In this document: positions 1 to 46,182 of the stretch, piece by piece | How positions within the stretch are numbered: the first letter of the stretch is position 1 | Layout: each line of letters starts with the position of its first letter | NCBI RefSeq assembly: GCF_004323185.1 | Contig: NZ_NAPS01000002.1 | Coordinates: 520,336 to 584,335, forward strand | Direction of reading: 5' to 3' | Origin: Westiellopsis prolifica IICB1 | GTDB taxonomy: Bacteria; Cyanobacteriota; Cyanobacteriia; Cyanobacteriales; Nostocaceae | DNA: 64,000 nt | Notes under the pieces: model-generated | Database searches by the model: none | What the model was told of the DNA's origin: nothing | The model's input: the letters and a program-made list of their open reading frames with translations, nothing else | Translations under genes and position numbers: made by a program

Positions 1-29
1 AGTTGTTGGTGGTTGATAGTTGGTTATTT

Positions 30-109
30 CCAATCCCCAATGCCCAATCCCCAATGCCCAATCCCCAATGCCCAATCCCCAATGCCCGATCCCCGATCCC
101 TAATGCCCT
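30..109. repeat. Short tandem heptamer repeats (STRR)
   Basis: A run of degenerate 7-bp units of the type CCAATCC / CCAATGC, ending in GATCCCC variants. This class of short tandemly repeated repetitive sequence is known from heterocystous cyanobacteria. It lies just upstream of the helicase gene. The same family recurs in this window near 8150-8180, 10713-10850 and 16725-16783. Confidence 0.85.
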
Positions 110-162
110 ACTTGCTAAGGCCTCATATAATATAGTAAAAGTCTGGTTGCAATTGTGATTTG

Positions 163-2838
163 GTGAATTATTCTGCACTGTCTTCAGAAGTAGACCCCAG
201 TTCTGTATTTCCTTTTGAACTGGATGCGTTCCAGCTAGATGCGATCGCTTCTCTCAATGCTGGACGTTCTGTGGTGGTTTGTGCGCCAACAGGTTCGGGT
301 AAAACCTTAGTTGGAGAGTATGGAATTTATCGTGCCTTGGCGCGAGGAAAACGGGTATTTTATACTACCCCCCTGAAGGCACTTTCTAACCAAAAATTAC
401 GTGATTTTCGTGACCAATTCGGCTTTGATGCCGTTGGGTTGTTAACAGGAGATGCTTCGATCAATCGGGATGCACCAATTGTAGTCATGACTACAGAAAT
501 TTTCCGCAACATGCTTTACGGCACACCGATTGGGCAAGTTGGTATCTCCTTAACAGACGTCGAAGCAGTGGTGTTAGATGAATGCCACTACATGAACGAT
601 CGCCAACGGGGAACAGTTTGGGAAGAATCGATAATTTATTGTCCCCACGAAATTCAACTGATTGCTCTATCAGCAACAGTCGCCAATAGTGAACAACTCA
701 CCGATTGGCTAAATCAAGTCCACGGTCCGACTGATCTGATCTACTCAGATTATCGTCCCGTTCCTTTGGAATTTCACTTTGGAAATCTCAAAGGGGTATT
801 TCCACTGTTGAATGACAATAAAACCCAAATTAACCCGCGTCTGCTCAAACGAAACAGAAAAAAAGAATTAGAAAAAGGCAAGGGCAATCGCAGACCGGAA
901 GCACCTAGTATAAATTTTATTCTTAGTCATCTCCAGCAACGAGATATGCTGCCAGCAATCTACTTTATCTTCAGTCGTCGCGGCTGTGATAAAGCAGTGA
1001 CAGAAGTAGGTGATATGTGGCTGGTGAATGAGCAAGAAGCACAGCAACTACGGCGACAAATTGACGACTTTTTCAGCCGTAACCCAGACGCGGGGCGAGC
1101 CGGACATATTGCTCCCCTCTACCGTGGTATCGCTGCACACCACGCCGGGATTTTACCTGCGTGGAAAGTACTAGTAGAAGAACTATTTCAGCAAGGACTA
1201 ATTAAAGTCGTATTTGCCACAGAAACCCTAGCAGCAGGAATTAATATGCCTGCTCGCACAACAGTTATTTCTACCATATCTAAGCGTACTGATACTGGAC
1301 ACCGGATGTTGACAGCTTCTGAATTTCTGCAAATGGCAGGAAGAGCAGGACGTCGGGGTATGGATGAAGTTGGTCATGTGGTGACATTACAAACTCCCTT
1401 TGAGGGAGCAGAACACGCAGCAGCTTTGGCAATCAAAAAACCAGACCCGTTGGTCAGCCATTTTACGCCCAGTTATGGCATGGTGTTGAACTTGCTGCAA
1501 ATTCATACTCTTGATGAAGCTAGAGAACTCATCGAGCGCAGTTTTGGTCAGTATCTAGCAAATGTACATCTCCAACCAAGGCAGCAATATATTGCCCAGT
1601 TGCAAGCAGAATTAGAAGAAATTAATACACAAATTGCTGCGGTAGAAGAAAGCGAAATCGCTAGCTATGAAAAACTGCGACAACGCCTGAAAGTAGAACA
1701 AAAATTATTAAACACACTGCAAGAGCAAGCAAACGAAGGGCGGCAAGAAGAATTAAATATGATGCTCAACTTTGCCGTCTCAGGAACATTACTTAGTCTT
1801 AAAGGTAAATACCTAACAACGTCTCTACCAGTAACCGCAGTACTAGTCGGCAAAACCCAAGGTGCTAGCCAAACACATTATTTAGTGTGTTTAGGGAGAG
1901 ATAACCGTTGGTATGTAGCAACTACAGCAGATGTAGTCAATTTATATGCAGAATTACCGAAAATTGATGTACCTCCTGACTTGCTACCACCTGCACAGAT
2001 GAATTTAAAGCCAGGACAGTCCTGTCGTGGTGAAGAAGAAAGTAGAGTGATCGCTAACCAAATTCCCGAACCAGAGGAATTTCTACACACACCGCCCGAA
2101 GTCGTAGAACAACTCCATGTAGTTGCCTGTTTACGAGAGCAAATAGAAGCTCACCCACTGCATAAAACTGGCAATGTCGGTACTATTTTCAAACGAAAAG
2201 TACGGGCTGCCGAACTAGAAGAAGAAATTCAAGAATTGCAAATCCAGATAGAGCAACAATCCCAACGACATTGGGAAGAGTTTCTTAACCTGATTGAAAT
2301 TTTGCAGTATTTTGAAGCCTTAGATAACTTATTACCTACACAATTAGGACAAATTGCCGCCGCAATTCGGGGTGAAAATGAACTGTGGCTTGGTTTAGTC
2401 CTTGCTAGTGGAGAACTAGATAACCTCGATCCCCATTGTTTAGCAGCAGCAGCAGCAGCATTAGTCACAGAAACTCCACGTCCTGATAGTAAAGTGCGCT
2501 TTGAACTTAGTGATGAAGTTGCAGAAGCTTTAGCGAAATTACGGGGAATTCGCCGCAAGATGTTCCAACTACAACGCCGCTATAACGTCGCTTTACCCAT
2601 CTGGTTGGAGTTTGAATTAATCGCTTTAGTTGAAAAGTGGGCATTAGGGATGGATTGGGTTGAACTGTGCGACAATACTAGTCTTGATGAAGGTGATGTC
2701 GTACGGATTTTGAGGCGGACACTGGATTTATTATCCCAAATTCCCCACGTACCTTATATGTCAGAGTCCTTAAGACGTAATGCTTTACGTGCTATCCAGT
2801 TAATTGATCGATTCCCAGTCAATGAAGTTATGGAATAG
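163..2838 (+). CDS. Ski2/Mtr4-like DEAD/DEAH-box RNA helicase
   Basis: An 891-residue superfamily 2 helicase. An N-terminal Walker A motif (APTGSGKT, about residues 40-47) is followed by TTPLKAL, a DECH box in [10 protein letters not shown], the SAT motif in LIALSATVA, and in the second RecA domain [16 protein letters not shown] and [10 protein letters not shown]. The AGINMP and GRAGRRG signatures are typical of the Ski2/Mtr4/Dob1 family, and the long C-terminal part fits the helical DSHCT region. The likely role is ATP-dependent RNA unwinding in RNA processing or decay. The start is chosen at GTG 163, giving [10 protein letters not shown]; a TTG lies one codon upstream. It is transcribed alone, with STRR repeats on both sides. 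Confidence 0.9.
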
Positions 2839-32453: not shown

Positions 32454-33287
32454 ATGAGGTTTCGCGCTGTAATTGTTGCACTCTTAGCTTTGTGCTTGGG
32501 GTTACTAACTGCTTGTAGTGAGGGTCCGACTGCTGGTAGTACAGATTTACTTACCTACGATCAAATTAAAGGAACTGGTCTGGCTAACAAGTGTCCCCAA
32601 CTCACAGAAACAAGTCGTGGTTCTATTCCCATTGATGCTAGCCAATCCTACGTCATAAAAGAACTTTGCTTAGAACCAACCAATTTCTTTGTCAGAGAAG
32701 AACCTGCGAATAAGCGTCAAAAAGCCGAATTTGTTCCAGGGAAATTAGTAACTCGCAAGACCTATTCGTTGGATCAAATCGAAGGCGACCTAAAGATTAA
32801 TTCTGATGGTAGCCTGACCTTTGTGGAAAAAGATGGCTTTGACTTCCAAGCTACCACCGTGCAATTAGCTGGAGGTGAGAGAGTACCTTTCTTGTTTACC
32901 ATCAAAGGTTTAGTCGCTCAGTCACAACCTGGTATGACCAGCATTAATACCTCAACAGATTTTGAAGGTGCTTTTAGAGTTCCTTCTTATCGTGGTGCTA
33001 CCTTCTTAGATCCTAAAGGTCGTGGTGTCGCCAGTGGTTATGATAATGCTGTGGCTCTCCCAGCTCAGTCTGATGATGAAGAGCTTCTTCGCGCTAATGT
33101 TAAGCGTGCTGATGTTCTTAACGGTAAAATCTCCCTCTCTGTAGCCAAAGTAGATAGTTCTACTGGTGAAATTGCGGGTACTTTTGAGAGTGACCAACCC
33201 TCTGACACTGATTTAGGTGCTGGTGAACCTAAGGATGTGAAAGTTCGTGGTATCTTCTATGCTCGCTTGGAACAAGCTCGTAGCTAA
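32454..33287 (+). CDS. psbO: Photosystem II manganese-stabilising protein PsbO
   Basis: A 277-residue extrinsic PSII subunit that stabilises the Mn4CaO5 oxygen-evolving cluster on the lumenal side. The start at ATG 32454 gives MRFRAVIVALLALCLGLL followed by a lipobox-like LTAC, so it may be lipid-anchored. Family motifs: LTYDQIKGTGLANKCPQL, SYVIKELCLEPTNFFV (the two Cys form the conserved disulfide), GERVPFLFTIKGLVA, and the C-terminal GIFYARLE. An upstream in-frame start at 32406 would spoil the signal peptide. Monocistronic, with a strong terminator downstream. Confidence 0.97.
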   Translation: MRFRAVIVALLALCLGLLTACSEGPTAGSTDLLTYDQIKGTGLANKCPQLTETSRGSIPIDASQSYVIKELCLEPTNFFVREEPANKRQKAEFVPGKLVTRKTYSLDQIEGDLKINSDGSLTFVEKDGFDFQATTVQLAGGERVPFLFTIKGLVAQSQPGMTSINTSTDFEGAFRVPSYRGATFLDPKGRGVASGYDNAVALPAQSDDEELLRANVKRADVLNGKISLSVAKVDSSTGEIAGTFESDQPSDTDLGAGEPKDVKVRGIFYARLEQARS

Positions 33288-33368
33288 ATGATTTTCGGTA
33301 GAAAACCTGAGTAAAACTCAAGATAGCTATTGTTATGCTCTTTGTAGCGATCGCAATAGCTAATCCCT

Positions 33369-33403
33369 AATCACCCTTATGACACTAAATCATAAGGGTG
33401 ATT
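33369..33403 (+). terminator. psbO transcription terminator
   Basis: AATCACCCTTATGA (33369-33382) and its exact complement TCATAAGGGTGATT (33390-33403) form a 14-bp stem with a 7-nt loop, 82 bp after psbO. A T-rich stretch (TGTTTAAGTATTTTTT) follows. It is a good candidate for a rho-independent terminator. The rest of the 520-bp gap up to sigF shows no gene. Confidence 0.8.
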
Positions 33404-33811
33404 CTGTTTAAGTATTTTTTGGGAAAAATTTTTCTTGCTCTAATTGGTATTTCTTGAATATTAGTTTTTATATATACGTCATATCTGTCTTTAATTACTT
33501 AAGTTAAGTACAATCTCGGTTTCAATTAAAGTAAAAATTTTTATATCCTTTGTATGTATTTTCAAAAACTATTGGTCATACCAAAGTTGACTAAATAATT
33601 ACTCTTTTCTACTGATTTAAATCCAGTCTCCATTGTCATACTCCTAATAGCAGACACTTCTATCAGAATTCTTTGTGTCCGCTATGGGGGTTAGTTGACC
33701 TGTTTGTATTTTGATTGAAATCTTTAAATGCATGACATGCACAATTGGAGCTTGGTTTAGCAGTGAATATTTAACTGTTTGTTTGTCAAGAGAAACAAAA
33801 CGGTGCTATCT

Positions 33812-34588
33812 ATGCCAACCACACTCACCAATGAACTGAAACATGAAATCTTACAGCTGCTACGAGAATATCAGCAATCTCGTTCGGCAAATGTTCGCAA
33901 TCAACTGGTAAAACTCAATTTTGGACTAGTGAGAAAAGAAGCTCACTATTGGATAAACCAGTGCCATGAAAGTTATGAAGATTTACTCCAGGTAGGCTGT
34001 CTAGGTTTAATTCGAGCAATTGAAAGATTTGAAATTTCTAAAGGTCATGCTTTCAGTTCTTTTGCCATTCCCTACATTCGGGGGGAAATTCAACATTATC
34101 TGCGAGATAAAGGTGTGACCGTACGAATTCCCCGACGCTACCTAGCACTGCAACAGCAGGCTATAGGAGTTTCGCGTTCTTTGCAAGAGAAATACAATCG
34201 CCAACCAACCGATGCAGAATTAGCCACAGCACTGGAAATTTCTACCCAGGAATGGCAGGAAATTAAATTAGCATGGATAAATCGCGCTCCTTTAAGCTTA
34301 GATGTACCAGTCCAGGATGGAGAAGAAGGAGCTACTTGCTTGGGAGAGTTGGTTGTTGATCATCGCTATCGTAGTTTTCAGCTAGCACAAGAAGATCAAA
34401 TTCGCTTGCAACAAGCGCTGTTTCAGCTCGAAAAACGTACCCGTGAAGTCTTGGAATTTGTGTTTTTACACGATTTAACACAAAAACAAGTAGCAGAGCA
34501 GCTAGGTATTAGTGTTGTCACTGTTTCTCGCAGAGTTAAAAAAGGGCTGGATTTGTTGAAACAATCAATGAGTGTTGCAGAAGATTAA
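33812..34588 (+). CDS. sigF: Group 3 RNA polymerase sigma factor, SigF-like
   Basis: A 258-residue sigma-70 family factor with region 2 (LVKLNFGLVRKEAHYW ... YEDLLQVGCLGLIRAIERFE ... FSSFAIPYIRGEIQHYLRD), region 3 (VRIPRRY ... LQEKYNRQPTDAELATAL) and region 4 (LEFVFLHDLTQKQVAEQL, then GISVVTVSRRVKKGL). It resembles the SigF/SigB-type cyanobacterial factor that in Synechocystis is needed for type IV pili and motility. The start is at ATG 33812; an in-frame TTG at 33779 is less likely. A PilP-like lipoprotein gene follows 104 bp downstream. Confidence 0.85.
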   Translation: MPTTLTNELKHEILQLLREYQQSRSANVRNQLVKLNFGLVRKEAHYWINQCHESYEDLLQVGCLGLIRAIERFEISKGHAFSSFAIPYIRGEIQHYLRDKGVTVRIPRRYLALQQQAIGVSRSLQEKYNRQPTDAELATALEISTQEWQEIKLAWINRAPLSLDVPVQDGEEGATCLGELVVDHRYRSFQLAQEDQIRLQQALFQLEKRTREVLEFVFLHDLTQKQVAEQLGISVVTVSRRVKKGLDLLKQSMSVAED

Positions 34589-34692
34589 ATGCCAAAAGTT
34601 GAGTTATAACGGTATCAGATTTCACATGAGCTTTTATATATAAGCATGTTGAATTTGATACACACAAATTTTCTGGTGAGAGAGAGGGGCTG

Positions 34693-35535
34693 ATGGGTAT
34701 AAATTTCAAAATATTAGTTGCAGCCATTTTTGTTTTAGCGATCGCCTCCTGTGCTTCTGAAGGTGAACAACAATCTAGTAATCCAATACCACCGCCTAAT
34801 ACACCAGCAAAAACGCAAAAACCACCAGCACAATCATTCAATAACCCTGTAGTTCCTCCGCAAGCAACTTCACTGACTTCTGCTTCTGCTAGCTTGATTC
34901 AACCCACAAATGCAAAAGCACGGATAAATATTGTCTCAAAAGGACGTAATGACCCGTTTGCTCAAATTGTTGGACAATCTCCTCTAGGAGTGGCGGATTC
35001 TACTATGGGAATGCGGCCTGTTCCCAGATTACTGCCTTTACCAATTACCAACACTAGAGGTAAATTAATAGCGACAAGAACACCGCAAAAAAGCAGTGTA
35101 GTGTTAAATGCCAAATTAAATAAATCAAAAAACAATATCAATAAAGCAGTTTCCAGCAAAAATCTGCCAAAATTAACTCCTGTCTTACCTAAAGTCATAC
35201 CCCCGGTTGTTCCCGACCAACGTTTAGCATCTGTATTACCACCACCACCACAACCAGATTTAGCCAAGGCTGTTTTTGTGAGTGGTGTGGTCATGCTTGG
35301 TAATCAACTTCAAGCTATTATCAAAGTACCAAATGAACCAACTAGCCGCTACGTACAGGCAGGACAGCGATTAGCAAACGGAGTTTTAATCAAACGTATT
35401 GAAATGAACGAAGGTTCGGAACCGATCATCATTTTGGAACAATATGGTATTGAAGTTAGCAAAATGGTTGGTGAAGCACCTGCTACCAGCCCAACAACAG
35501 CGACAACAGCCACCACTGGTGGACTACCTACCTGA
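34693..35535 (+). CDS. Lipoprotein with a PilP-like C-terminal domain
   Basis: 280 residues. The N-terminal signal ends in a lipobox (LAIASC, Cys at about 20), followed by a low-complexity Pro/Thr/Asn region. The C-terminal part (RYVQAGQRLANGVLIKRIEM ... PIIILEQYGIEV) has the G-x-x-L-x-N-G-V-x-V/I pattern of pilus assembly lipoprotein PilP. A role in the type IV pilus alignment complex is inferred from this pattern and from the upstream sigF-like gene. Similarity is short, so a different envelope role is possible. Confidence 0.6.
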   Translation: MGINFKILVAAIFVLAIASCASEGEQQSSNPIPPPNTPAKTQKPPAQSFNNPVVPPQATSLTSASASLIQPTNAKARINIVSKGRNDPFAQIVGQSPLGVADSTMGMRPVPRLLPLPITNTRGKLIATRTPQKSSVVLNAKLNKSKNNINKAVSSKNLPKLTPVLPKVIPPVVPDQRLASVLPPPPQPDLAKAVFVSGVVMLGNQLQAIIKVPNEPTSRYVQAGQRLANGVLIKRIEMNEGSEPIIILEQYGIEVSKMVGEAPATSPTTATTATTGGLPT

Positions 35536-35582
35536 CACGGTAAAGTAGAGTGTGGGGCTTGTGTCGGAACTAGTTAAAAAAG

Positions 35583-35825
35583 ATGAAGACAAAAGAAAAA
35601 GTAGAATTTACTGGTTTACCTCTGGCAGTTTATCGCGAGGTAGCGGCTCATCTACGGCAAGTAGAAGGAGTGGAAGTAGAATTTATTCCCCAATCTTCCC
35701 CACAGTTTGATTACAACCAAAGCCAAATTGCTGGTTTGTGGATTTCAGTTTCTCCCGACTTTGATTGTGTTAGTCAGCAAAGAGTCGAACAAATTTTGGC
35801 TTATTATCGCGATCGCTATATGTGA
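35583..35825 (+). CDS. Small conserved cyanobacterial protein
   Basis: 80 residues beginning MKTKEKVEFTGLPLAVYRE, soluble, with a predicted alpha/beta pattern (LAVYREVAAHLRQVEGVEVEF ending in VEQILAYYRDRY). No known domain. It follows the lipoprotein gene by 47 bp on the same strand and may be co-transcribed with it. Function unknown. The 247-bp gap after it contains no gene and precedes the tubulin-like operon. Confidence 0.65.
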   Translation: MKTKEKVEFTGLPLAVYREVAAHLRQVEGVEVEFIPQSSPQFDYNQSQIAGLWISVSPDFDCVSQQRVEQILAYYRDRYM

Positions 35826-36072
35826 ATTGAATCAAATTCAAACCATCGCAATTTTGGGTAAAGTTTATCTACCCAATTTTTTTGTGTTGGAAAACTTGAT
35901 TAGTTTTGAGGTTGCAACAATACTTCAATTGCACACAAAATTCACAATATTTTACAAATAAGTATGATTTTAACAAAACTTGACTTGATCGTAGCTATAA
36001 TTTTAGTAGTGTCATGTTATACGTTGAATTAATTAATATACTATTTTATTTATAATAAGGCTCTTGTAGTTC

Positions 36073-37227
36073 GTGACAAGCGAAATAGTTATTCCAGGGA
36101 AGCAATCACTTAGTTATTTTCAAAAAATATTACTAGAAATAATTCCTCGCATACCTGGATATGGAGGAAGGGATGTAGTATTTGCAATAGATCTGACAGA
36201 AAGTGTCGGATTCAATGATGAAGGGCGCACACGCTTACGTCAGATAGTAGAAGATAGCTTACAACCTGGTGACTCAGTTTATATTGTTCCTTTTGCCAGA
36301 GATATTATTTTATCAGATAGACGAACAGGTGTAAATCCATTAGGAACATCTATACATATTTTTAACAAAAATCAAGAAAATATTGATCGAATTTTAGAGA
36401 AAATTCCTTTTGCATCTGATCCAAATCATTACGGAACAGATATTCAACAAGCTGAATTAAATATTTATCAGGGTGTAGCACAACTCAATCAAAATCGTTT
36501 ACATAAAAATCAACCAATCAAACCGCAATCTGTGGTTTGGCTTACCGATGCACCTTTACTTACAAAACCAGGTATTAGTTCAGATATTTGGAATGAAACT
36601 CCTGCTGAGAGTCCTTTTCGGATAGAAAATTCTCCAGAGAGTCAACAACGACAAGCTTGGATTCAGACATTACCTTTAAAGGAGCGATCGCTCTCGATTA
36701 AGACTCAAAATAACAAAGAATACACACTTACTATAATAGATATTCCCCCGACAGTACAAGAACTTTGTACACCAGTACCAGGAGGTCGAGAAACTTGTCT
36801 CGTAAATTCTTATTTATTTAACCAACTTTGGCTACCTGGCTTAATTTCATTATTAATATTTACCGGATTTATTTTGGGAATAATGAAATTGTACAAGCTT
36901 CAAAAAAAATGGGAATTAATCGTAGATTTTGAAATCACAGAACAACCGGAAGATCAAAAATGTCGATTACCAAATCATAAACGCATTGCTATTGGTGAAT
37001 ATGATCCTAGCTGTGTGGATTCCATTGATTGTCCAGGAGCAGAAGTAAGAGGATATTTAGAACGTAAAGGTGAAAAACTTTATCTCATACCTACAAATTA
37101 TGCACCCATTTATTTAAATGGTCACGAAATCAAATCACGCACTCTGATATCTAATTCTCGATTCCGAATGAATTGTCCTGATGCTCGTAACCGTGAATAC
37201 GAAATAGTAATTAAAATCAACAAATAG
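36073..37227 (+). CDS. vWA-domain membrane protein with FHA-like C-terminal domain
   Basis: 384 residues from a GTG start. Residues 33-220 form a von Willebrand A-like domain with a MIDAS-type D40-L-T-E-S44 (Asp-x-Thr-x-Ser rather than the usual DxSxS) in VVFAIDLTESVGF, a Thr in HYGTDIQQAE and an Asp in VVWLTDAP. A transmembrane segment follows (LWLPGLISLLIFTGFILGIM, about 255-275). The C-terminal region (KRIAIGEYD ... AEVRGYLERKGEKLYLI ... IYLNGHEI) has an FHA-like beta pattern. It is the first gene of the four-gene tubulin-like/stator operon, 24 bp before the next gene. The FHA assignment is tentative. Confidence 0.75.
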   Translation: MTSEIVIPGKQSLSYFQKILLEIIPRIPGYGGRDVVFAIDLTESVGFNDEGRTRLRQIVEDSLQPGDSVYIVPFARDIILSDRRTGVNPLGTSIHIFNKNQENIDRILEKIPFASDPNHYGTDIQQAELNIYQGVAQLNQNRLHKNQPIKPQSVVWLTDAPLLTKPGISSDIWNETPAESPFRIENSPESQQRQAWIQTLPLKERSLSIKTQNNKEYTLTIIDIPPTVQELCTPVPGGRETCLVNSYLFNQLWLPGLISLLIFTGFILGIMKLYKLQKKWELIVDFEITEQPEDQKCRLPNHKRIAIGEYDPSCVDSIDCPGAEVRGYLERKGEKLYLIPTNYAPIYLNGHEIKSRTLISNSRFRMNCPDARNREYEIVIKINK

Positions 37228-37251
37228 CCTGAAATATTAGGTAAAAATTAT

Positions 37252-40200
37252 ATGATTAATATCACTGGTAATGAACTTCAGTATCGGGGAATTAACCGAA
37301 CAGTATGTATCGGTTTAGGTGGGACTGGACGTGATGTATTGATGCGAATTAGACGGTTAATCGTAGATAGATATGGAGATTTAAATAACTTACCAATTGT
37401 CAGTTTTGTTCACATCGATACTGATAAAGCAGCAACTCAAGTAACTGGTATTCGTACAGGAAGTATTTATCATGGTGTTGATCTCAGCTTTACAGAAGCA
37501 GAAAAGGTCAGCGCCACTATGTCTACTAGCGAAGTTACTATGTTTGTACAAGGACTAGAACGGCGCTCTGAGTACACCCGTCATGGTCCCTATGACCACA
37601 TTGGAATGTGGTTTCCCCAACAGTTAATTAGAAATATTAAAGCTGTAGAAGAAGGTGCTAAAGGTATTAGACCAGTAGGAAGATTAGCATTTTTTCATAA
37701 TTATCAAAAAATTACTACAGCAATTGAAACAGCAGAAAGACGTACTAGAGGACATGATCCAATATTACTAAGAACAGGTTTAAGAATTGAACCGGGACTA
37801 AATATTTTTGTTGTGGGTTCTCTGTGTGGTGGTACAGGGAGCGGTATGTTTTTAGATGTTGCTTATAGTCTTAGACATCTTTATGTAAATCAAAATGTAC
37901 AGATTGTCGGCTATTTAATAATTAGTCCACAATTATACGGCAATACTCCTAGCATGAGTGCTAATACTTATGCTGCTCTTAAAGAGCTAAATTATTATAG
38001 TATTCCCAGCACAACATTTGAAGCTTGTTATGATATTCAAAATCTAGTTTTTATTCGAGAACGTCGTCCAGCCTTTGACTATGCTTATTTAGTTTCTCAT
38101 CAAACTGGAGGTGAATATCAAATTCTCACCCAAGGTAAGTTGTGCAATGTCATTGCTCACAAAATAGCTTTAGATTTTTCTGGAGAATTAGCACCGATAG
38201 TTAAAGGAAATCGAGATAATTTTTTGCAGCATTTAATTCAGTGGGACAAGCACCCTCGCCCAAATAGTCAGCGTTATTTAACTTTTGGATTATCAGCAAT
38301 TTATTTTCCTCGCGATACTATTGTGCAAATTGCTCTAACTCATGTGAGTTTACAACTAGTAAAATTCTGGTTAACTGGTGAAGGTCAAAGTCCAGATCCT
38401 GTGACTTTACTAGAAAGATTTATTTTTCAATATCGCTGGCACAGTGATCTAGCAAAAAAAGATGGTATAGTTACTAGACTGACAGAGTCAGTGCAAGAAT
38501 CAAACAAGAGTTTTATTAACGCAATCTCCGCATGGAGAACTAAATTAGAAAAGTTAATTAGTAATTGTCAAAATCGAGATGATCGCGATAGTGTTCGTCA
38601 GCAATTAGCAAGGGAATTTCGTGAACAATTTCGCAAAATTCAACCAGGTGAAACTGAGAGTAGCAGAGGAATTTGGTTGACAAGATTATTACATATTACT
38701 CCAAATATTACTAAAGAATTACAGTCAAATATTGACGATTTTATTATTCAGTTACTCACACCCAGCGATCCTAACTTTTCAATTAAAAATAGTCGTGACT
38801 GGCTAGATATTTTGCAATATGAACTGAGTAATTATCTCCAGAATATCCAAGAAGAAATGATGGGGTTTAATGGATGGAAAACTCTTGAAGATATAGAGAG
38901 AAAGTGGCGCAATGCAGAACAGGTAATAGAAGATATTGAACAAAAACCTAGTATTCCTTTTATTAGTAATAAAAATCACCAAGTCCATTTAGAAGCAAAA
39001 AAAGTCATCAAAGAAATTTGCGATTTAATCAAACAAAACTTTGATTTTGCAGTCCTTCAGGAAGCTTTGCAAATTGTCACTAATTTGGAAAAACACGTTC
39101 AAGAAAGAATTACCTTACTTGCTGCGTTTCATAGCTTGGTAGAAAGTTTGCAAAATATTTATGAAAAACAAGAAAGAGATTTAAAACAACTAAATTTTGA
39201 TGAGATGAGCGGTGAAGCTATCTTTGATAGTGAAGATGTTGAACTTTGTTATCAAACAATGTTACCAAAAGACGATTTTCGTCGTCAGCTGGTGTTAGCA
39301 AGCGCAGAAATTACTGAAGTAACCGGAAAAGGACAGAGTTTAGCAAGTTTTATTGATCGCGATCGCGCAGTAGCACTGCAACTTCAAAAAGAAATCGATG
39401 TCAATGTTGATAAATTATTTGCTCCTCGTTGTAACAATATTGTTAACTCCGTAATCAAGCGGTTCATGCAAAATTATTCGATTTCTGCACGTTCAACTCG
39501 TTTAGCACAAATTATGCAGGAAGCTGAACCACTGCTGAGTCTAAATTTAAGTGATCCTTACTTTCGTGATGATCCTGCTAAAAGTAGTCAACTTATAGGG
39601 TTTAAAGATGTAGATGAACTAGAAGTACAACAATTTAAAATTTTATTGGGGAAAGATTTGGGAATTACTGGTGACAAATTTAAACCCACCCAATCTGATG
39701 ATGAAATTTTAATTGTGAATGAGTACGCCGGTTTTCCTCTAAGGTTGATTAGCAGTCTGGAAAACATGAGAAATCCATACTTGCGCGAACTTAATTCTCC
39801 TACTTCTTTTCTCCATAATGATTCTCGAATTTCTTTCCCTGATATTGTCCCCCCTGATGTCAGAATTATTGAACAACTAGAGGATGTTTTTTATCCTGCT
39901 CTTGCTTTTGAATTATTACAAGAAAACCAGGAAAATCATGAATTAGAGTTTCAATATTACGATAGTTTGCGCGATATTTATAATACTGCATCTTTGAGTC
40001 CAGAATGGAGCCAAGCACTAGAAGAACTTGCTAACCGCAAGGACATAAGTACAGAGTTGCATAAACGTTTGGATAATGAAATTTCTCAGATAGCAAAAGA
40101 ACCTCAACTTTGGGAAAGTGAATACTTACCGAAGTTGCGAGAGTTTGTCAAAAAAATTGATGAATTACCAGAAGACAGTCCAAATTATCCTTATAAAGCA

Positions 40201-40506
40201 ACAGTTGTAGGAACACTCAATAGCAGCGATCCCAATGCAAAAGAGGGAATTATTATTCGCTTTCGGAAAAAAATGGATGAGCGATTTAACTCTACTGTAC
40301 AGCGAAATTTTCCACCTACAAATACCATAAATCAGAAAGCTATACCTGGTGAAATAGTTATTGATCCACCTGGAGATTTCAACGATAATAGAGCAAAAAG
40401 ACGTTCCGAACTAGAGAAATTAAAGCAGGATTTAGAAGAAGGATTTTTAACCACAGAGGAGTACGAAAGAGAACGGCAAAGAATATTTACCAAATATCCA
40501 CTGTAA
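37252..40506 (+). CDS. Tubulin/FtsZ-like GTPase (Tubulin_2 family)
   Basis: 1,084 residues. The N-terminal 400 residues look like a tubulin/FtsZ fold: VCIGLGGTGRDVLMRIRRL (nucleotide-binding loop 1), VSFVHIDTD, and the signature GSLCGGTGSGMFLDVAYSL with GGTGSG at 193-198, the counterpart of GGGTGTG. A long, charged, mostly helical C-terminal region of unknown fold follows, ending in LEKLKQDLEEGFLTTEEYE, a SHOCT-like tail. It resembles the FtsZ-like families proposed for membrane remodelling together with vWA and OmpA-type partners, and exactly such partners flank it here. GTPase activity and filament formation are inferred, not shown. Confidence 0.82.
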   Translation: MINITGNELQYRGINRTVCIGLGGTGRDVLMRIRRLIVDRYGDLNNLPIVSFVHIDTDKAATQVTGIRTGSIYHGVDLSFTEAEKVSATMSTSEVTMFVQGLERRSEYTRHGPYDHIGMWFPQQLIRNIKAVEEGAKGIRPVGRLAFFHNYQKITTAIETAERRTRGHDPILLRTGLRIEPGLNIFVVGSLCGGTGSGMFLDVAYSLRHLYVNQNVQIVGYLIISPQLYGNTPSMSANTYAALKELNYYSIPSTTFEACYDIQNLVFIRERRPAFDYAYLVSHQTGGEYQILTQGKLCNVIAHKIALDFSGELAPIVKGNRDNFLQHLIQWDKHPRPNSQRYLTFGLSAIYFPRDTIVQIALTHVSLQLVKFWLTGEGQSPDPVTLLERFIFQYRWHSDLAKKDGIVTRLTESVQESNKSFINAISAWRTKLEKLISNCQNRDDRDSVRQQLAREFREQFRKIQPGETESSRGIWLTRLLHITPNITKELQSNIDDFIIQLLTPSDPNFSIKNSRDWLDILQYELSNYLQNIQEEMMGFNGWKTLEDIERKWRNAEQVIEDIEQKPSIPFISNKNHQVHLEAKKVIKEICDLIKQNFDFAVLQEALQIVTNLEKHVQERITLLAAFHSLVESLQNIYEKQERDLKQLNFDEMSGEAIFDSEDVELCYQTMLPKDDFRRQLVLASAEITEVTGKGQSLASFIDRDRAVALQLQKEIDVNVDKLFAPRCNNIVNSVIKRFMQNYSISARSTRLAQIMQEAEPLLSLNLSDPYFRDDPAKSSQLIGFKDVDELEVQQFKILLGKDLGITGDKFKPTQSDDEILIVNEYAGFPLRLISSLENMRNPYLRELNSPTSFLHNDSRISFPDIVPPDVRIIEQLEDVFYPALAFELLQENQENHELEFQYYDSLRDIYNTASLSPEWSQALEELANRKDISTELHKRLDNEISQIAKEPQLWESEYLPKLREFVKKIDELPEDSPNYPYKATVVGTLNSSDPNAKEGIIIRFRKKMDERFNSTVQRNFPPTNTINQKAIPGEIVIDPPGDFNDNRAKRRSELEKLKQDLEEGFLTTEEYERERQRIFTKYPL

Positions 40507-40611
40507 TATCATAGATATCAAAATATCTAAATTTCCTGTCTTTTTTATGTTGATGGAGTTTATTGATCTGTCAATGCTATCTATATAGTTGCAACCTAAC
40601 AAAGTTTTTTC

Positions 40612-42258
40612 ATGCCACCAATACCCATTCCCCTAATCATTCTATCTTTCATCTTAGTTATTTTACCCTGTGTATTTGCTGTAGTTTTACGAATTACTCT
40701 TTATAAGCATCTAATTTTTTTAGAACAGCGACTTAGAAGATTAATTAATAGACAGGAACGTGGACAACAACCGAAAATTATTGAAGATTTAGAAAGAAGA
40801 TTTTTACATGCAAGTAAAAATCTAGACCATGTCAATACTACCGCATTAATTGAAGATGCTTATAGTCGAGAAAAAATAGGTTCCATTACTTGCGAACAAA
40901 TCGATTATTTATGTCGAACTTTGCCAAACTTACTACTAGCTTTTGGTTTATTTGGCACTTTTGTGGGTATTACATTTAATTTATATACCCTTGGTGAAAC
41001 AATTAATCAAAGTAATGCTAGTAATATCAGTACCTTGGTTGCAGAATTAGAGAAACCACTCCAAGGTATGAGTATAGCTTTTGTTAGTAGTTTGATAGCT
41101 TTATGTTTTAGCGCTTTACTAACAGTCATAAATTTATCTCTAAATACAAGTTTATTAAAATACCGCTTAATTAGCTGCTTAGAAGATTATCTAGATAATA
41201 TTTATCAACCTCAAGTCCAGGGTGACACTCGTCTTGATAAAATTGTGAATAAAATGGTGTCCCAACAGGAAAGATTCTTAGCTAATTTTGGTAATACTGT
41301 TCGCACAGCAGTAGAAACATCTTTAGGAAAAGTAACACAGCAAATAGCAGATAGTAATAAAGAGGTTGCTGATTTAGCTAGACAAGTATATGAAAGTTTT
41401 ACACAATCTGCTGGAACCATATCTGCTGCTGCGAATGAGTTTAAGTTCACCATTGAAGAATTAAATCAAAAAGCAGAGATATTTAAACAAGCTGCTGATA
41501 CTTTTGATCAAAGTCAGTTTCCTGCAAAATTATCAGAAGCTACAGCAGATTTAGCTACTATACAGGAAAAATTTTATGATTCTACCGCTAGTTTAGCCGA
41601 AGCAACAACAGTTATAGCTACGGTAGTAAAAGAGGTTCAGCGTTGTAGTCAAGAGTTAATTAATCTAGGTGCAGAAATTAAAGAGATTAATACAACTTCT
41701 GTACAAATGTTAAAGTTGCATCAAAATAATCAGCAATCTCTGAGTGAGATTATTCCACAACTGAAACAAGGAGCAACTAGTTTTTCAAAAGCTGTTAACA
41801 AACTGGATAAATTAGAACAAAGAATTACTAATGATGCAGAGAGTTTAGAAAAACTCATAGAAAATGTGAAAACCTATACTCAGCAAGTCAATTCAGCAAT
41901 AGAAATTACAGGCGATCGCTTGATTTCTAATTTATCCCAACAACTAGGTACAAACCAAAAACAAATCCAAACTGTAATTGCTAATTTAGAAGGATACGCC
42001 AATCAATTAAGTGTAAAGTTTGACACGCTCACTTTAGACATGGTGCAGTTAATTAAAGACAATAACGCAGGTTATCAAACAGTAGGAACCAGGCTCATAG
42101 AAGGTGTAAACAAGCAAACTATACAGGTTACAAGAAGTATAGAAGAATGTATTAAAAATCTTAACGATACTAAATTTGAAATTTACAGACTGAGACAAAA
42201 TTTGGAAAATTTTCCAGAAAAAGCACCAGATACATTAGATGGCTTGAATAAATTTTAA
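40612..42258 (+). CDS. MotA/TolQ/ZorA-like channel subunit with long coiled-coil tail
   Basis: 548 residues. Hydrophobic segments lie at about 4-29 (PLIILSFILVILPCVFAVVL), 103-127 (LLAFGLFGTFVGITFNLYTL) and 145-170 (MSIAFVSSLIALCFSALLTV). The last two match the paired helices of MotA/TolQ/ExbB/ZorA, including the FGTFVGI motif. From about 190 to the end runs a long coiled-coil region, as in ZorA, whose tail projects into the cytoplasm. It is followed 17 bp later by a MotB/ZorB-like gene, so the two probably form an ion-conducting stator. Confidence 0.78.
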   Translation: MPPIPIPLIILSFILVILPCVFAVVLRITLYKHLIFLEQRLRRLINRQERGQQPKIIEDLERRFLHASKNLDHVNTTALIEDAYSREKIGSITCEQIDYLCRTLPNLLLAFGLFGTFVGITFNLYTLGETINQSNASNISTLVAELEKPLQGMSIAFVSSLIALCFSALLTVINLSLNTSLLKYRLISCLEDYLDNIYQPQVQGDTRLDKIVNKMVSQQERFLANFGNTVRTAVETSLGKVTQQIADSNKEVADLARQVYESFTQSAGTISAAANEFKFTIEELNQKAEIFKQAADTFDQSQFPAKLSEATADLATIQEKFYDSTASLAEATTVIATVVKEVQRCSQELINLGAEIKEINTTSVQMLKLHQNNQQSLSEIIPQLKQGATSFSKAVNKLDKLEQRITNDAESLEKLIENVKTYTQQVNSAIEITGDRLISNLSQQLGTNQKQIQTVIANLEGYANQLSVKFDTLTLDMVQLIKDNNAGYQTVGTRLIEGVNKQTIQVTRSIEECIKNLNDTKFEIYRLRQNLENFPEKAPDTLDGLNKF

Positions 42259-42275
42259 AATAAAATTTTTAGTTT

Positions 42276-42944
42276 ATGTCTAAGCGATCGCGACCTTTTA
42301 ATGAACATGAAGACCTCAATATTTGGCAAGCATTTACAGACCTCATGTCTAATGCTTTCATGATACTTTTATTGTTACTATTAATAATTAGTGTTAAATA
42401 TACAATATCACAAATATCAAATAAGAAAGATACGGCAACAGGTAGACCACCAATTTTTTTAATCAAAGACGAAAATTACAGATTTGAGCCTGGTAGCGCG
42501 GCAATTCCTCCAGATATGCTCAATTATATTATTAATAAAATTGTGCCTGGTATTGAAAAAACAACAAGAGATTACAATATCGATACTGTAGAAATTATTG
42601 GTCATACTGATGAGCAATCTATTGGAAACGGTATAGCCAGTAATCTAGACAATAATTTAGAAGCATTTGCTAGTGATAAAGGTGCTGTCGTCGCCCTGAA
42701 ACCAGGATCTAATGCTGATTTAGGGTTAATGCGTTCTTTAGCAGTAGTCAAAGAACTCTTGAAAATTCAAAAACAAAAAGGTCGCATGTCAGGAATTAAA
42801 TTTCGTGCCTACTCAGCAGCACAATTAATATTACCAAACGGAGAATTTGCCCCTGTTCCCAAGGGAGTGCGTCAACCAGAAGCAACACGACGACGCATTG
42901 AATTTCGCTTTACTCGCTTAGGTGAAGTGCAAGAACTTAATTGA
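42276..42944 (+). CDS. MotB/ZorB/OmpA-like stator subunit
   Basis: 222 residues. A short cytoplasmic N-terminus leads into one transmembrane helix, IWQAFTDLMSNAFMILLLL, whose Asp22 sits where MotB, TolR and ZorB keep their ion-carrying Asp. The C-terminal half is an OmpA/MotB peptidoglycan-binding domain: YRFEPGSAAIPP, EIIGHTDEQSIG, LGLMRSLAVVKELL and a terminal RRRIEFRF. It should anchor the stator to the cell wall. Last gene of the four-gene operon. Size and layout fit ZorB-like proteins better than flagellar MotB, and cyanobacteria have no flagella. Confidence 0.8.
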   Translation: MSKRSRPFNEHEDLNIWQAFTDLMSNAFMILLLLLLIISVKYTISQISNKKDTATGRPPIFLIKDENYRFEPGSAAIPPDMLNYIINKIVPGIEKTTRDYNIDTVEIIGHTDEQSIGNGIASNLDNNLEAFASDKGAVVALKPGSNADLGLMRSLAVVKELLKIQKQKGRMSGIKFRAYSAAQLILPNGEFAPVPKGVRQPEATRRRIEFRFTRLGEVQELN

Positions 42945-43202
42945 ACATAGGGATTGGGAATTATCCGTCATGAGCCGCACTCGTGTACCGGAATTAACTT
43001 CGCAGTAAATCCGTAGCCCTCTGTATCCATACGCTAGATACATAGCCGCTACGCACCTACTGGTGTTTACTTATGACCATTGATACCTGAGAAATGATCA
43101 CCGGGGATTCTTTAAAAACAGTTTCAATTTCCGAAACGAAGGTGACAAAAGCTGTAGGAAGAGAGTAGCTTATTTGATAATAACAAGCGGCACTCAGCAG
43201 CT

Positions 43203-44153
43203 ATGGTAAAAGAATTAGCAATCCGCACCAATGGACTGACGAAGCAATTTGACAGGCACGTTGCCGTTAATAATGTTGATTTAGAAATTTATACAGGTGA
43301 GGTATATGGCTTAATCGGCCCCAATGGTGCAGGTAAAACAACTCTCATTCGGATGTTAGCAGCAGCAGAAGAACCGACTACGGGTGAGATTTATATTAAT
43401 GGCGATCGCTTCTTACGTGACCAAAGTAACCCTACTCTTAAGCGTCGTCTTGGTTACTTACCTGATGACTATCCTCTATATGAGGAACTGACAGTCTGGG
43501 ACTACCTAGATTATTTTGCCCGTTTGTATCGTTTGCGAGAACCACGCCGGACAAAACGTCTGCATGAGGTTTTAGAACTAATACAACTGGGGAATAAACG
43601 CAATAGCTTGATTTCCACTTTGTCACGGGGGATGAAACAGCGCCTCAGTTTGGCGCGCACAATCATTCATGAACCAATTTTGCTGCTGTTAGATGAACCT
43701 GTTTCAGGACTCGATCCAATTGCGAGGATGCAGTTTCGAGAAATCATCAAAGTCTTGCAAGAAGCGGGAATGACAATCTTAATTTCTTCCCATGTTCTCA
43801 GCGATTTGGCAGAATTATGTACTTCGGTGGGAATCATGGAACTTGGTTATTTAGTAGAAAGTGCATCACTACAACAACTCTATCAACGTCTTGCCCGTCA
43901 ACAAATTGTCATCTCAACTTTAGGAAAGCAAGAGGAACTGTTAGCAGAACTTAAGAATAATGCTTTTGTGGAAGAGTGGGAAGTCATTAGTGCTAAAAAT
44001 AGCGTGCGGGTGAATTTTTCTGGTAAGCAGGAAGACTGTGCTAACTTGTTGCGATCGCTCATCCAAGCTGACATTCCGATTAGCGAATTTCATTGCACCC
44101 AAGAAGACCTAGAAACTATTTTCCTCAAGCTTGGTCATAAACAAGCATCTTAG
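43203..44153 (+). CDS. ABC transporter ATP-binding protein
   Basis: A 316-residue ABC ATPase: Walker A GPNGAGKTT (about 39-47), signature LSRGMKQRLSLA (about 140-151), Walker B ILLLLDEPVSGLDP, H-loop in ISSHVLSD, and a C-terminal extension of about 90 residues typical of ABC-2 exporters. The two large permease genes downstream (44263 and 46287) are its likely partners. The substrate is not evident. The 258-bp gap upstream contains a repeat-like stretch near 43010-43070 and separates it from the stator operon. Confidence 0.88.
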   Translation: MVKELAIRTNGLTKQFDRHVAVNNVDLEIYTGEVYGLIGPNGAGKTTLIRMLAAAEEPTTGEIYINGDRFLRDQSNPTLKRRLGYLPDDYPLYEELTVWDYLDYFARLYRLREPRRTKRLHEVLELIQLGNKRNSLISTLSRGMKQRLSLARTIIHEPILLLLDEPVSGLDPIARMQFREIIKVLQEAGMTILISSHVLSDLAELCTSVGIMELGYLVESASLQQLYQRLARQQIVISTLGKQEELLAELKNNAFVEEWEVISAKNSVRVNFSGKQEDCANLLRSLIQADIPISEFHCTQEDLETIFLKLGHKQAS

Positions 44154-44262
44154 TCAAGGGTCAATTGTCAATAGTCAATTGTTACTCTCCACATATCCCC
44201 CGTCCCCCTTGTCCCCCTTCCAATCCCTGATCCCCAACCCCCAACCTTGGAGTTTTTCACCT

Positions 44263-46176
44263 ATGTTGCTCAATTTTATGGATAGAATAGGCGACTGGAA
44301 CCCGCAATTATTGCGGGAAATTAAAGGTCGTCTCAAAGTTTTCCCTGTGGCGATCGCCTGTATTACATCTTTAATTGGTCAGTTGATATTGTTCCTGTAT
44401 CAATTGCGGGAGATACCAGGCGAAAAATATCAAATGTCAGGTACTTATTGCCGCTTAGGAGAAGTTTACAAACAACAAGTAAACGATATTTACCCACAGA
44501 TTAGCAAACTGCAACAACAATTATCTTGGCTAAACAAATCTAAAAATTATGATGCGTCAGCAGTTCAATCTTTAACACAACAAATAGACCAACTTAAGGC
44601 TCAAGAAAAAAATATTAATAATATTTTGTACAATAAGTACTGCCCTCTTGAGCAAATTAATATGCAGCAGTGGTGGCGAGATCACTGGGAATATATATTC
44701 CTATCACTGACTGTCATTTTTATTTTCACACTATTAGTTGCGGGTACTTATTTACTGATTAATAACTTAGCTCAAGAAGAAAATCGCGGTACATTAAATT
44801 TTTTGCGTCTTAGCCCCCAGTCAGAAACAAGTATTTTGACTGGTAAAATGTTGGGAGTTCCAATATTAATTTATCTGGCAGTTGTAGTCGCAATACCTTT
44901 TCATTTATTAGCAGGTCGTGCTGCTAATATTGCCTTTAGTCACATTTTGAGTTTTTATGTCATTTTAGGTGCTAGTTGCTTTTTCTTCTATAGTACCGCA
45001 CTATTATTTGGCTTTGTTAGTCGTTTATTCAGTGGATTTCAGCCTTGGTTGGGTAGTGGCGCAGTTCTCATTTTCTTGTTTGTGACAATGCAACTTGCAT
45101 CTTCTGGACCATATTTAGATAATGCAGCTGCTTGGTTAAGACTTTTCAGTCCCTTTGATATGACGGCTTATTTATTCCCCAATTTGTTCCGTAGATATAA
45201 TTGGGAATTACTGGAACAAATACAATTTTTCTACCTACCTGTTGGAAAAAGCCTTCTTTGTTTAGTGGGTTTAAATATAGTCAATTATGGTTTGTGGAGT
45301 TATTGGGTTTGGTATGGTTTAAAGCGCCGCTTTCGTAACCCAAACTCTCCAATGCTAAGTAAGGGACAAAGTTATTTGCTTGTTGCTTATTTGCAACTTA
45401 TTCTTTGGGGGTTCACTCTCCAGTATTTCAAAAATTATCGTCATTACTACTCCAATGGAAATCCTGCTCCTGCTTATTACGATTTCAACTATCAAGTAAC
45501 GCAAAACTTTGGCTTGATAATGTTTTTTAACTTGCTGTTACTGTTTGGTTTAATGACAATTCTCTCACCACATCGGCAAGCAATTCAAGATTGGGCTAGA
45601 TATCGACATCAAAAAATTTCCCAACGTAAAGGATTTTGGCAAAATTCTTTATTACAAGATTTAATCTGGGGTGAAAAAAGTCCAGCAATAGTCACAATCG
45701 CAATCAATCTTGTGATTGTGAGTCTTCCATTAGTAACTTGGATTTTAGTTGCACTTTCTTTGCAGACGAATCATAACAATAGCTTAAATTGGCTAGTTAA
45801 CGAAGTTGGTCGCTTCAAAGCAATTTTAGGTGTAGTTTTGTTTATCTGTATGATGATGATCTACGCCACAATCGCGCAAATCATCCTATTGATGAAAACT
45901 TCCAAACGTGCGGTTTGGGCAATTGGAACTGTCGCTACAGTGATGTTTTTACCGCCCATGTTTTTAGGAATGTTGAGTCTGAATCCAGATAAAAATTCTA
46001 CGTTATGGTTGCTTTCAAGTTTTCCTTGGGCAGGGTTAGAATATACGACGAGTACAACTGTTTTTATCGCTCTTTTGAGTGAGTTGAGTATTTTAGGATT
46101 GTTAAACTTACAGTTGAAACGTCAAATAAAAATAGCAGGAGAATCTGCTACTAAAGCTTTGCTAACAAAAAGCTAA
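44263..46176 (+). CDS. ABC-2 type transporter permease (copy 1)
   Basis: 637 residues from ATG 44263 (MLLNFMDRIGDWNPQLLREI). The frame is open upstream, but that part is translated from STRR-like CCCC-rich DNA and is not credible. About 12 hydrophobic segments; the motif RGTLNFLRLSPQSETSI after the second hydrophobic segment, then GKMLGVPILIYL, is typical of this large cyanobacterial ABC permease group. A Gln-rich periplasmic loop with a coiled coil (ISKLQQQLSWL) distinguishes it from copy 2. It probably forms an exporter with the preceding ATPase. Confidence 0.83.
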   Translation: MLLNFMDRIGDWNPQLLREIKGRLKVFPVAIACITSLIGQLILFLYQLREIPGEKYQMSGTYCRLGEVYKQQVNDIYPQISKLQQQLSWLNKSKNYDASAVQSLTQQIDQLKAQEKNINNILYNKYCPLEQINMQQWWRDHWEYIFLSLTVIFIFTLLVAGTYLLINNLAQEENRGTLNFLRLSPQSETSILTGKMLGVPILIYLAVVVAIPFHLLAGRAANIAFSHILSFYVILGASCFFFYSTALLFGFVSRLFSGFQPWLGSGAVLIFLFVTMQLASSGPYLDNAAAWLRLFSPFDMTAYLFPNLFRRYNWELLEQIQFFYLPVGKSLLCLVGLNIVNYGLWSYWVWYGLKRRFRNPNSPMLSKGQSYLLVAYLQLILWGFTLQYFKNYRHYYSNGNPAPAYYDFNYQVTQNFGLIMFFNLLLLFGLMTILSPHRQAIQDWARYRHQKISQRKGFWQNSLLQDLIWGEKSPAIVTIAINLVIVSLPLVTWILVALSLQTNHNNSLNWLVNEVGRFKAILGVVLFICMMMIYATIAQIILLMKTSKRAVWAIGTVATVMFLPPMFLGMLSLNPDKNSTLWLLSSFPWAGLEYTTSTTVFIALLSELSILGLLNLQLKRQIKIAGESATKALLTKS

Positions 46177-46182
46177 GGCGAA

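What the first reader, a model, noticed from the sequence alone, without database searches (positions are those of the whole stretch)
36073..42944. Tubulin-like GTPase operon with vWA/FHA protein and a Zorya-like MotA/MotB stator pair
Seen: four same-strand genes, in order a vWA-like membrane protein (D40-L-T-E-S44) with an FHA-like tail, a 1,084-residue tubulin-like protein (GGTGSG at 193-198), a MotA/TolQ/ZorA-like subunit with a long coiled-coil tail, and a MotB/ZorB-like OmpA protein with Asp22 in its helix. Gaps are 24, 105 and 17 bp. Known: as I recall, Makarova and Koonin (2010) proposed FtsZ-like families in a membrane-remodelling system with vWA and OmpA proteins, and Zorya uses a ZorAB proton-driven stator. 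Inferred: a tubulin-like filament is coupled to ion flow through a wall-anchored stator, for envelope remodelling or for defence. I know of no experimental description of this combination.
Basis: partly seen in the sequence, partly recalled or inferred. Interest (0 to 1): 0.88.

Follow-up and report, generated by a model that had tools for sequence, protein, structure and literature searches.

The report
Ion-motor and tubulin-like cyanobacterial gene set
Some cyanobacteria carry a four-gene set that pairs a bacterial tubulin relative with a cell-wall-anchored ion-driven motor and a membrane adaptor protein; its work is untested, and it may be a way to let ion flow push on or switch a tubulin-like protein.

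Summary
Genes at 36073-42944 encode, in order, a vWA-membrane-FHA protein, an FtsZl1 (Tubulin_2, E=5.5e-105) protein with a CetZ/tubulin fold, a ZorA-like MotA/TolQ subunit with a long helical tail, and a ZorB-like MotB/OmpA protein with invariant membrane Asp22. The full order recurs in 70 of the 80 named cyanobacterial loci kept and in 28 of 244 sampled genomes. Three relatives lack exactly these four genes between the same neighbours, so they form one accessory unit. A distant genome (G047) has another ZorAB branch downstream of its own tubulin. It is not Zorya: the same genome carries a separate Zorya I with ZorC. FtsZl1-vWA-OmpA loci were described in 2010; reading the 'OmpA' protein as a MotB-type stator with a MotA partner answers that paper's topology problem and was found in no paper I could search. 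Best reading: a wall-anchored, ion-driven stator whose cytoplasmic rod acts on a tubulin-like GTPase at the membrane. Against obligate coupling: ZorAB of this family also occurs without the tubulin, and other tubulin clades without ZorAB. Function (envelope versus defence) is unproven; stable core-genome sites favour envelope.

The parts
36073..37227 (+). vWA - single transmembrane helix - FHA-fold protein (384 aa)
   Evidence: ORF; AF2 mean pLDDT 85.3; FHA 279-384 and vWA within 25-223 by fold; one hydrophobic segment 251-276
36190..36204 (+). MIDAS metal-site motif DLTES (residues 40-44); T122 and D159 complete it (assignment recalled)
   Evidence: D40, T42, S44 in 28 of 28; T122 in 26 of 28; D159 in 27 of 28
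37252..40506 (+). FtsZl1 / Tubulin_2 tubulin-like GTPase (1084 aa)
   Evidence: PF13809 5.5e-105; CetZ 3zid_A Z 23.5, 307 aligned residues
37828..37845 (+). GTP-binding T4 loop GGTGSG (residues 193-198)
   Evidence: invariant in the 23 sequences of A4
38377..39582 (+). approximately: long helical insert (about residues 376-777) inside the tubulin fold
   Evidence: AF2 secondary structure and aligned model range 14..851; boundaries inferred
39583..39804 (+). approximately: rest of the tubulin C-terminal (activation) domain (about residues 778-851)
   Evidence: inferred from the order of strands and helices
40612..42258 (+). ZorA-like MotA/TolQ subunit (548 aa), three hydrophobic regions and a long helical tail, cytoplasmic by homology
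   Evidence: PADLOC ZorA1 1e-13, NF033915 1.6e-9, 8qyk E=0.0097; conserved membrane motifs in A2; hydrophobicity
42276..42944 (+). ZorB-like MotB subunit: TM helix with Asp22 and OmpA-like peptidoglycan-binding domain (222 aa)
   Evidence: PADLOC ZorB1 9e-8; D22, H110-T111-D112, R153, R205-207 in 27 of 27
42339..42341 (+). codon of the presumed ion-carrying Asp22
   Evidence: invariant in 27 of 27; counterpart of ZorB D24/D21 (PMC11890865; correspondence inferred)

Best explanation
The four genes make one envelope-spanning machine. ZorA-like and ZorB-like proteins form an inner-membrane ion-driven stator (by homology five ZorA around two ZorB), held to peptidoglycan by the ZorB OmpA-like domain. 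The helical ZorA tail (about 370 residues, up to 55 nm if straight) reaches into the cytoplasm and acts on the FtsZl1 GTPase, a tubulin-fold protein with a large helical insert, switching or moving its assemblies at the membrane when ion flow or wall contact changes. The vWA-TM-FHA protein is the membrane adaptor. Shown: gene identities, predicted folds, conserved key residues, inheritance as a unit. Inferred: 5:2 assembly, peptidoglycan binding, ion flow, GTPase activity and filament formation, contact between the ZorA tail and FtsZl1, and the role, most likely sensing or remodelling of the cell envelope rather than DNA-directed phage defence.
For: Order vWA-tubulin-ZorA-ZorB in 70 of the 80 named loci kept and in 28 of 58 sampled loci, each from a different genome of 244. 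Precise four-gene empty site in three relatives (gaps 246, 459, 157 bp). Tubulins linked to ZorA and/or ZorB form one clade (30 rows plus one with vWA only, SH-aLRT 99). A distant co-occurrence in G047, with a ZorAB pair of another branch and no ZorC-type hit in the four genes between. Pore and wall-binding residues needed in Zorya (D24; H186, R203, R254: PMC11890865) have invariant counterparts (correspondence inferred). Near-invariant E312 at the inferred T7 position, 21 of 23. FtsZ proper is a separate gene, so this is not the divisome FtsZ.
Against: No experiment. 22 of 52 ZorB places are not near a tubulin-like gene (at least one of these, G116, is a real Zorya), and stand-alone pairs are nested among operon ones in the ZorB tree (many forks poorly supported), so the stator seems able to work without the tubulin. 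24 of 57 fetched loci have the tubulin without vWA, ZorA or ZorB of this family. L105 keeps only a zorA remnant and L166, L139 and L161 have no zorA by the tubulin. Filament formation of FtsZl1 is not known to me to have been shown. Topology of the vWA protein is unsettled: charges put FHA inside and vWA outside (27 of 28), yet the only hydrophobic segment is that one helix, so no signal peptide is seen.
Confidence: 0.48

Rival explanations
1. A Zorya-like anti-phage system in which the tubulin-like protein and the vWA protein replace the DNA-cutting effectors: ZorAB senses injection at the envelope and the FtsZl1 assembly blocks the phage or kills the cell.
For: ZorA/ZorB homology. Accessory, patchy distribution and exact presence/absence. 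Thermus oshimai and Allomeiothermus silvanus plasmids carry vWA-tubulin-unknown near a brxL gene and RecQ-type helicases (annotation; BrxL profile 6.8e-102 for Thermus); an Azospirillum tubulin lies near caspase-family genes.
Against: No ZorC/D/E/F/G among ten window proteins; a separate Zorya I with ZorA, B and C exists in the same genome (ZorD was not sought). Fixed sites between core genes. No match of the tubulin in phage records nor of ZorB in viral contigs.
Confidence: 0.27
2. Neighbours without a joint machine: ZorAB is a self-standing stator (for example for envelope energy transduction), and vWA-FtsZl1 is a separate module that merely shares the site.
For: ZorAB without tubulin and vWA of this family in L169-L177 and others; tubulin without ZorAB in other cyanobacterial clades and vWA-tubulin in Thermaceae; tree nesting.
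Against: Same order across genera, loss or gain as a four-gene block, relocation as a block (G191), and a second, distant co-occurrence.
Confidence: 0.18
3. The stator is a force transducer to the outer envelope (as proposed for vWA proteins beside TolQ-type motors in PMC12204202) and FtsZl1 is only a cytoplasmic scaffold that positions it.
For: vWA proteins beside TolQ-type motors are proposed force transducers (PMC12204202 section 8); here vWA may face the periplasm.
Against: The window vWA protein has no Asp in its membrane segment and ZorB already supplies the pore Asp; its FHA tail is not described in that section.
Confidence: 0.07

Closest known systems
FtsZl1 (FtsZ-like 1, Tubulin_2) loci of Makarova and Koonin 2010, PMC2875224 (main text parts 1-4 of 5 read; supplements not readable)
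   Same: Tubulin_2 protein with GGTGSG, coiled-coil centre and helical end; vWA gene; OmpA-domain gene in several genomes; cyanobacteria included
   Different: MotA, TolQ, ExbB and FHA do not occur in that paper's main text and its OmpA proteins are treated as membrane beta-barrel proteins; here the OmpA protein is a MotB/ZorB-type stator subunit with a MotA/ZorA partner. No P-loop GTPase or kinase among the ten window proteins scanned
Zorya anti-phage systems (ZorAB motor; PMC11890865, abstract and section 6 read)
   Same: MotA/MotB-type pair, long ZorA tail, pore Asp, wall-binding His and Arg
   Different: No ZorC/D, ZorE or ZorF/G among the ten window proteins; vWA and tubulin instead; ZorB family split from two cyanobacterial Zorya ZorB by a long branch
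Flagellar MotAB, TolQR, ExbBD, AglRS
   Same: Same superfamily of 5:2 ion-driven motors
   Different: No flagellar or Tol/Ton gene found beside it; Pfam MotA_ExbB finds four other places in this genome (one below the curated cut-off, one the Zorya ZorA) but not this gene
CetZ and tubulin
   Same: Predicted fold, Z 23.5 to CetZ 3zid_A over 307 residues
   Different: About 400-residue helical insert splits the C-terminal domain (inferred); filaments not known

Membership tests
FtsZl1 / Tubulin_2 | Tubulin_2 domain with GTP loop | tested here: met
   352 bits against cut-off 27; GGTGSG invariant in 23
FtsZl1 / Tubulin_2 | vWA gene in the operon | tested here: met
   fold and MIDAS residues
FtsZl1 / Tubulin_2 | coiled-coil centre and helical C-terminus | tested here: met
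   mostly helices at 421-757 and 919-1081 in the model; coiled coil as such not computed
Tubulin superfamily | GTP-dependent filaments | not testable with these tools
   fold only
Zorya | ZorA and ZorB at curated level | tested here: not met
   homologous but below NCBIfam cut-offs: NF033915 37.3 of 100 bits, NF041788 16.6 of 400
Zorya | effector ZorC/D, ZorE or ZorF/G beside ZorAB | tested here: not met
   none among 10 window proteins, 32406-47999; positive control L201 gives ZorC 7.7e-161
5:2 ion-driven stators | invariant Asp in the B-subunit membrane helix and Ser/Thr in A-subunit pore helices | tested here: met
   D22 27 of 27; T116, T121, S160 27 of 27; assignment to the pore is inferred
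5:2 ion-driven stators | peptidoglycan-binding OmpA-like domain | tested here: met
   H110-T111-D112, R153, R205-207 invariant in 27; Pfam OmpA below cut-off; binding itself untested
5:2 ion-driven stators | 5:2 assembly and ion flow | not testable with these tools
   single-chain prediction only
FHA domains | FHA fold | tested here: met
   6c4u_F Z 11.0, rmsd 2.7, 101 residues
FHA domains | phosphothreonine-binding Arg of the Gly-Arg motif (motif recalled) | tested here: not met
   after G308 the residue is E, D, Q or G; Arg in 0 of 28

The most novel reading that the evidence does not exclude
An ion-driven, wall-anchored rotary stator that drives or gates a tubulin-family cytoskeleton through its cytoplasmic rod: ion flow coupled to a tubulin-like filament whose C-terminal domain is split around a long helical insert.
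Probability: 0.32. Interest if true: 0.92.

Novelty: new variant of a known kind. Interest (0 to 1): 0.72.

Why it matters
FtsZl1 loci were proposed in 2010 as a membrane-remodelling system, and a reviewer then objected that a cytoplasmic FtsZ-like protein could not work with outer-membrane OmpA proteins. A MotB-type stator with a MotA partner whose tail reaches the cytoplasm would remove that objection for this clade and gives testable point mutants. If coupling is real, it would be a new use of ion-driven motors and a new way to control a tubulin relative. It also shows ZorAB-type pairs outside Zorya; whether Zorya borrowed an older envelope stator or the reverse is open.

Tried and rejected
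Chance grouping: rejected. Zorya membership: rejected for the window with the genome's own Zorya as control. Canonical phosphothreonine FHA: not supported. Divisome FtsZ: the genome has FtsZ as a separate gene, inside this very window. Phage or plasmid carriage of this clade: none found (the five plasmid hits are under 60% identity and cover at most 36% of the query; three that I put in the tree, Thermus, Allomeiothermus and Azospirillum, fall outside the clade). The PDB sequence search with the tubulin protein found only two weak hits, both Sec66/Sec71. Survey of other phyla: not possible; the one genome-contig scan kept the best 80 of 135 loci, all cyanobacterial, and a plasmid locus cannot serve as a centre. 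Supplementary files of PMC2875224 were not readable here, so I cannot exclude that its list of associated families already holds the ZorA-like protein. Models are single chains; no complex was modelled. No promoter or transcript test was made, so 'operon' rests on spacing and conservation. Rows dropped: L081 from A1 and A2; L055, L064, L066, L071, L081 from A4 (short or split frames); tubulins under 500 aa from the tree. In that tree L082 is labelled 'none' although a wider fetch shows ZorAB there.
Full report
Observation. The window lies in a 7.3 Mb, 29-contig genome whose closest named relatives by the tubulin-like protein are Pelatocladus maniniholoensis and Fischerella sp. PCC 9431, 95 and 94% identical. 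Upstream are psbO, sigF and an unnamed 280-aa protein; downstream is an ABC exporter set.

Identities. Protein 2 matches Tubulin_2 over the whole profile (5.5e-105). An AlphaFold2 model from 23 aligned relatives (mean pLDDT 76.8) matches tubulins and, best, CetZ of Methanosaeta (3zid_A, Z 23.5, rmsd 3.9, 307 aligned residues of a 360-residue chain). The matched model range runs from 14 to 851, while residues from about 376 to 777 are mostly long helices. I infer that the C-terminal tubulin domain is present but split by a helical insert; the 2010 paper found no similarity there. At the inferred T7 position, E312 is conserved in 21 of 23. Protein 3 matches ZorA over its membrane part (PADLOC 1e-13; NF033915 1.6e-9; PDB 8qyk E=0.0097). 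Its alignment keeps the invariant residues of PNLL...GLxGTFxGITxNL and PLxxMxxAFxxS, and the tail from 201 to 520 has only 2 prolines. Protein 4 matches ZorB (9e-8), with D22 and the wall-binding-type His, Asp and Arg residues invariant in 27 of 27. Protein 1 is weak by sequence (VWA_2 0.12), but its model (mean pLDDT 85.3) has a vWA fold and an FHA fold on either side of one membrane helix. Its metal site is conserved (D40, T42, S44 28 of 28; T122 26; D159 27). The canonical FHA Arg is absent in 28 of 28, so phosphopeptide binding is not supported. Positive charges follow the helix in 27 of 28 and two cysteines before it are invariant (28 of 28), which suggests vWA outside and FHA inside; but no second hydrophobic segment that could be a signal peptide is seen, so the topology is open.

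Recurrence. In 244 genomes of the phylum, Tubulin_2 was matched in 54 (I take the weakest matches to be ordinary FtsZ). I fetched 57 loci, two of them weak matches without a tubulin of this kind. All four genes in order, on one strand, are in 27 of 57, plus the window: 28 genomes of 244. In three of these (L066, L071, L081) the tubulin frame is split. 24 loci have the tubulin only, and four are partial. A scan of named genomes gave 135 encoding stretches, of which the best 80 were kept, all cyanobacterial. 70 of 80 have the full order. Of the other ten, five are explained by contig ends (L101, L103, L132, L147, L163); L105 has only a 66-residue zorA remnant and is cut upstream; L166 has no zorA in the 2.2 kb left; L133 has zorB on the other strand; L139 and L161 have the tubulin only. 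Hosts with the full set range from Fischerella, Nostoc, Dolichospermum and Trichodesmium to unicellular Chroococcus, Hyella, Prochloron and Microcystis, so neither filaments nor heterocysts explain it (lifestyles recalled).

Unit. In Anabaena sp. 4-3 (L096) the operon sits between an 81-aa gene and an 856-aa gene in the psbO-sigF to ycf48-ndhC region (ycf48, rubredoxin and ndhC are names read from sequence and recalled, not from a profile). Three relatives without the operon (G042, G024, G127) have the same two neighbours with gaps of 246, 459 and 157 bp, and none of the three has a Tubulin_2 or ZorB match elsewhere. In G191 the four genes lie together at another site. Of 71 complete loci, 15 share the 280-aa gene and sigF and 14 psbO within four genes upstream, 13 share the 799/856-aa gene downstream, and seven Nostoc or Desmonostoc loci share another site. 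So the four genes are one accessory unit, often at stable sites.

Evolution. Tubulins linked to ZorA and/or ZorB form one clade of 31 rows (30 linked, one with vWA only; SH-aLRT 99) among 60 rows. Other cyanobacterial loci have a periplasmic binding protein (Peripla_BP_6 2.3e-20 in L034) and a membrane protein with a vWA-like motif (VWA_2 0.0033 in L059, no match in L034 or L035), or a secreted vWA (1.3e-13 in L083) and a 1032-aa protein, without ZorAB. In the distant genome G047, downstream of a 588-aa protein with a vWA-like motif read by eye (no Pfam match) and a tubulin, the same strand carries four more genes without ZorC-type hits and then ZorA (7e-12) and ZorB (5.8e-28). That ZorB lies outside the family of the window, on a long branch, so this is a second, separate pairing, and in my view the best hint of a general link; it rests on one genome, 74% complete. 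Against a fixed link, 22 of 52 ZorB places have no tubulin within 12 kb. Among these are stand-alone pairs nested among operon pairs in the ZorB tree (eight changes, at least four forced by starred branches), three pairs next to a protein-kinase-like gene (profile for L174 only), and a true Zorya (L186, ZorC 4e-168). The stator is therefore not obligately tied to the tubulin.

Comparison. FtsZl1 with vWA, a P-loop GTPase and OmpA was proposed as a membrane-remodelling system in 2010 (PMC2875224; parts 1-4 of 5 of the text read). A reviewer there objected that cytoplasmic FtsZl1 and outer-membrane OmpA could not form a complex. The MotB/ZorB identity would remove that objection for this clade: the OmpA domain is the wall anchor of an inner-membrane stator and the MotA partner reaches into the cytoplasm. 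MotA, TolQ, ExbB and FHA do not occur in that paper's main text. In Zorya, the pore Asp, wall binding and the ZorA tail are all needed (PMC11890865, abstract and section 6). vWA proteins next to TolQ-type motors have been proposed as force transducers (PMC12204202, section 8). A 2025 MotAB survey mentions neither tubulin nor cyanobacteria in its text (PMC12505986, passages only); a 2023 FtsZ/tubulin phylogeny notes the Tubulin_2 group (PMC9871819, passages only). The listings of searches of the open-licence library showed no paper that joins ZorAB to a tubulin (one hit, PMC12904381, has the word only in its references); most subscription papers and all preprints are outside it.

Verdict. The finding is real and its parts are identified. 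The coupling of an ion-driven stator to a tubulin-like GTPase is the best explanation (0.48), with defence (0.27) the main rival. It is a new variant of a known kind: an FtsZl1-vWA locus with a Zorya-like, but non-Zorya, stator.

Noticed in passing
L201:5000-9797 (G000:C1, about 3.0535-3.0583 Mb): The window's own genome has a separate Zorya I: ZorA 2.5e-270, ZorB 1.6e-67, ZorC 7.7e-161.
   Followed up: partly
window 20709-22046 (-): The gene ftsZ (TIGR00065 1.4e-136) lies about 14 kb from the tubulin-like operon; its neighbourhood with psbO is shared by relatives with (L096) and without (L200) the operon.
   Followed up: partly
L188:7419-15378 and L189:7381-16473: Thermus oshimai and Allomeiothermus silvanus plasmids carry vWA - tubulin-like - unknown protein near a brxL gene and helicases.
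   Followed up: partly
L190:5981-18693: Azospirillum plasmid: tubulin-like gene among caspase-family, OmpA and DUF4384 genes.
   Followed up: no
L133:13327-15705: ZorA tail ends in a GUN4 domain (8.8e-41); 2 of 22 long ZorA proteins match GUN4.
   Followed up: partly
L171:1769-10180 and L172:1366-10099: ZorAB of this family near a lipoprotein with a vWA-like motif (L171), a 502-aa GVGGSGAK protein without family match (L171) and a large protein with a weak FtsA match (L172).
   Followed up: partly
L174, L175, L176: ZorAB pairs beside a divergently transcribed kinase-like gene (L174: Pkinase 2.6e-44).
   Followed up: no
L195:5853-10471: Rhizobium plasmid genes: two unknown proteins, a coiled-coil protein annotated as chemotaxis protein (weak ZorA match 6.1e-7) and an OmpA protein (weak ZorB match 7.9e-5).
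   Followed up: partly
window 10938-14168: Helicase-like protein with DISARM DrmD-type match (1.1e-34, below cut-off).
   Followed up: no
L156:17077-19255: A second ZorAB pair, its zorA in several frames, in opposite orientation beside the complete operon in Cyanothece sp. BG0011.
   Followed up: no
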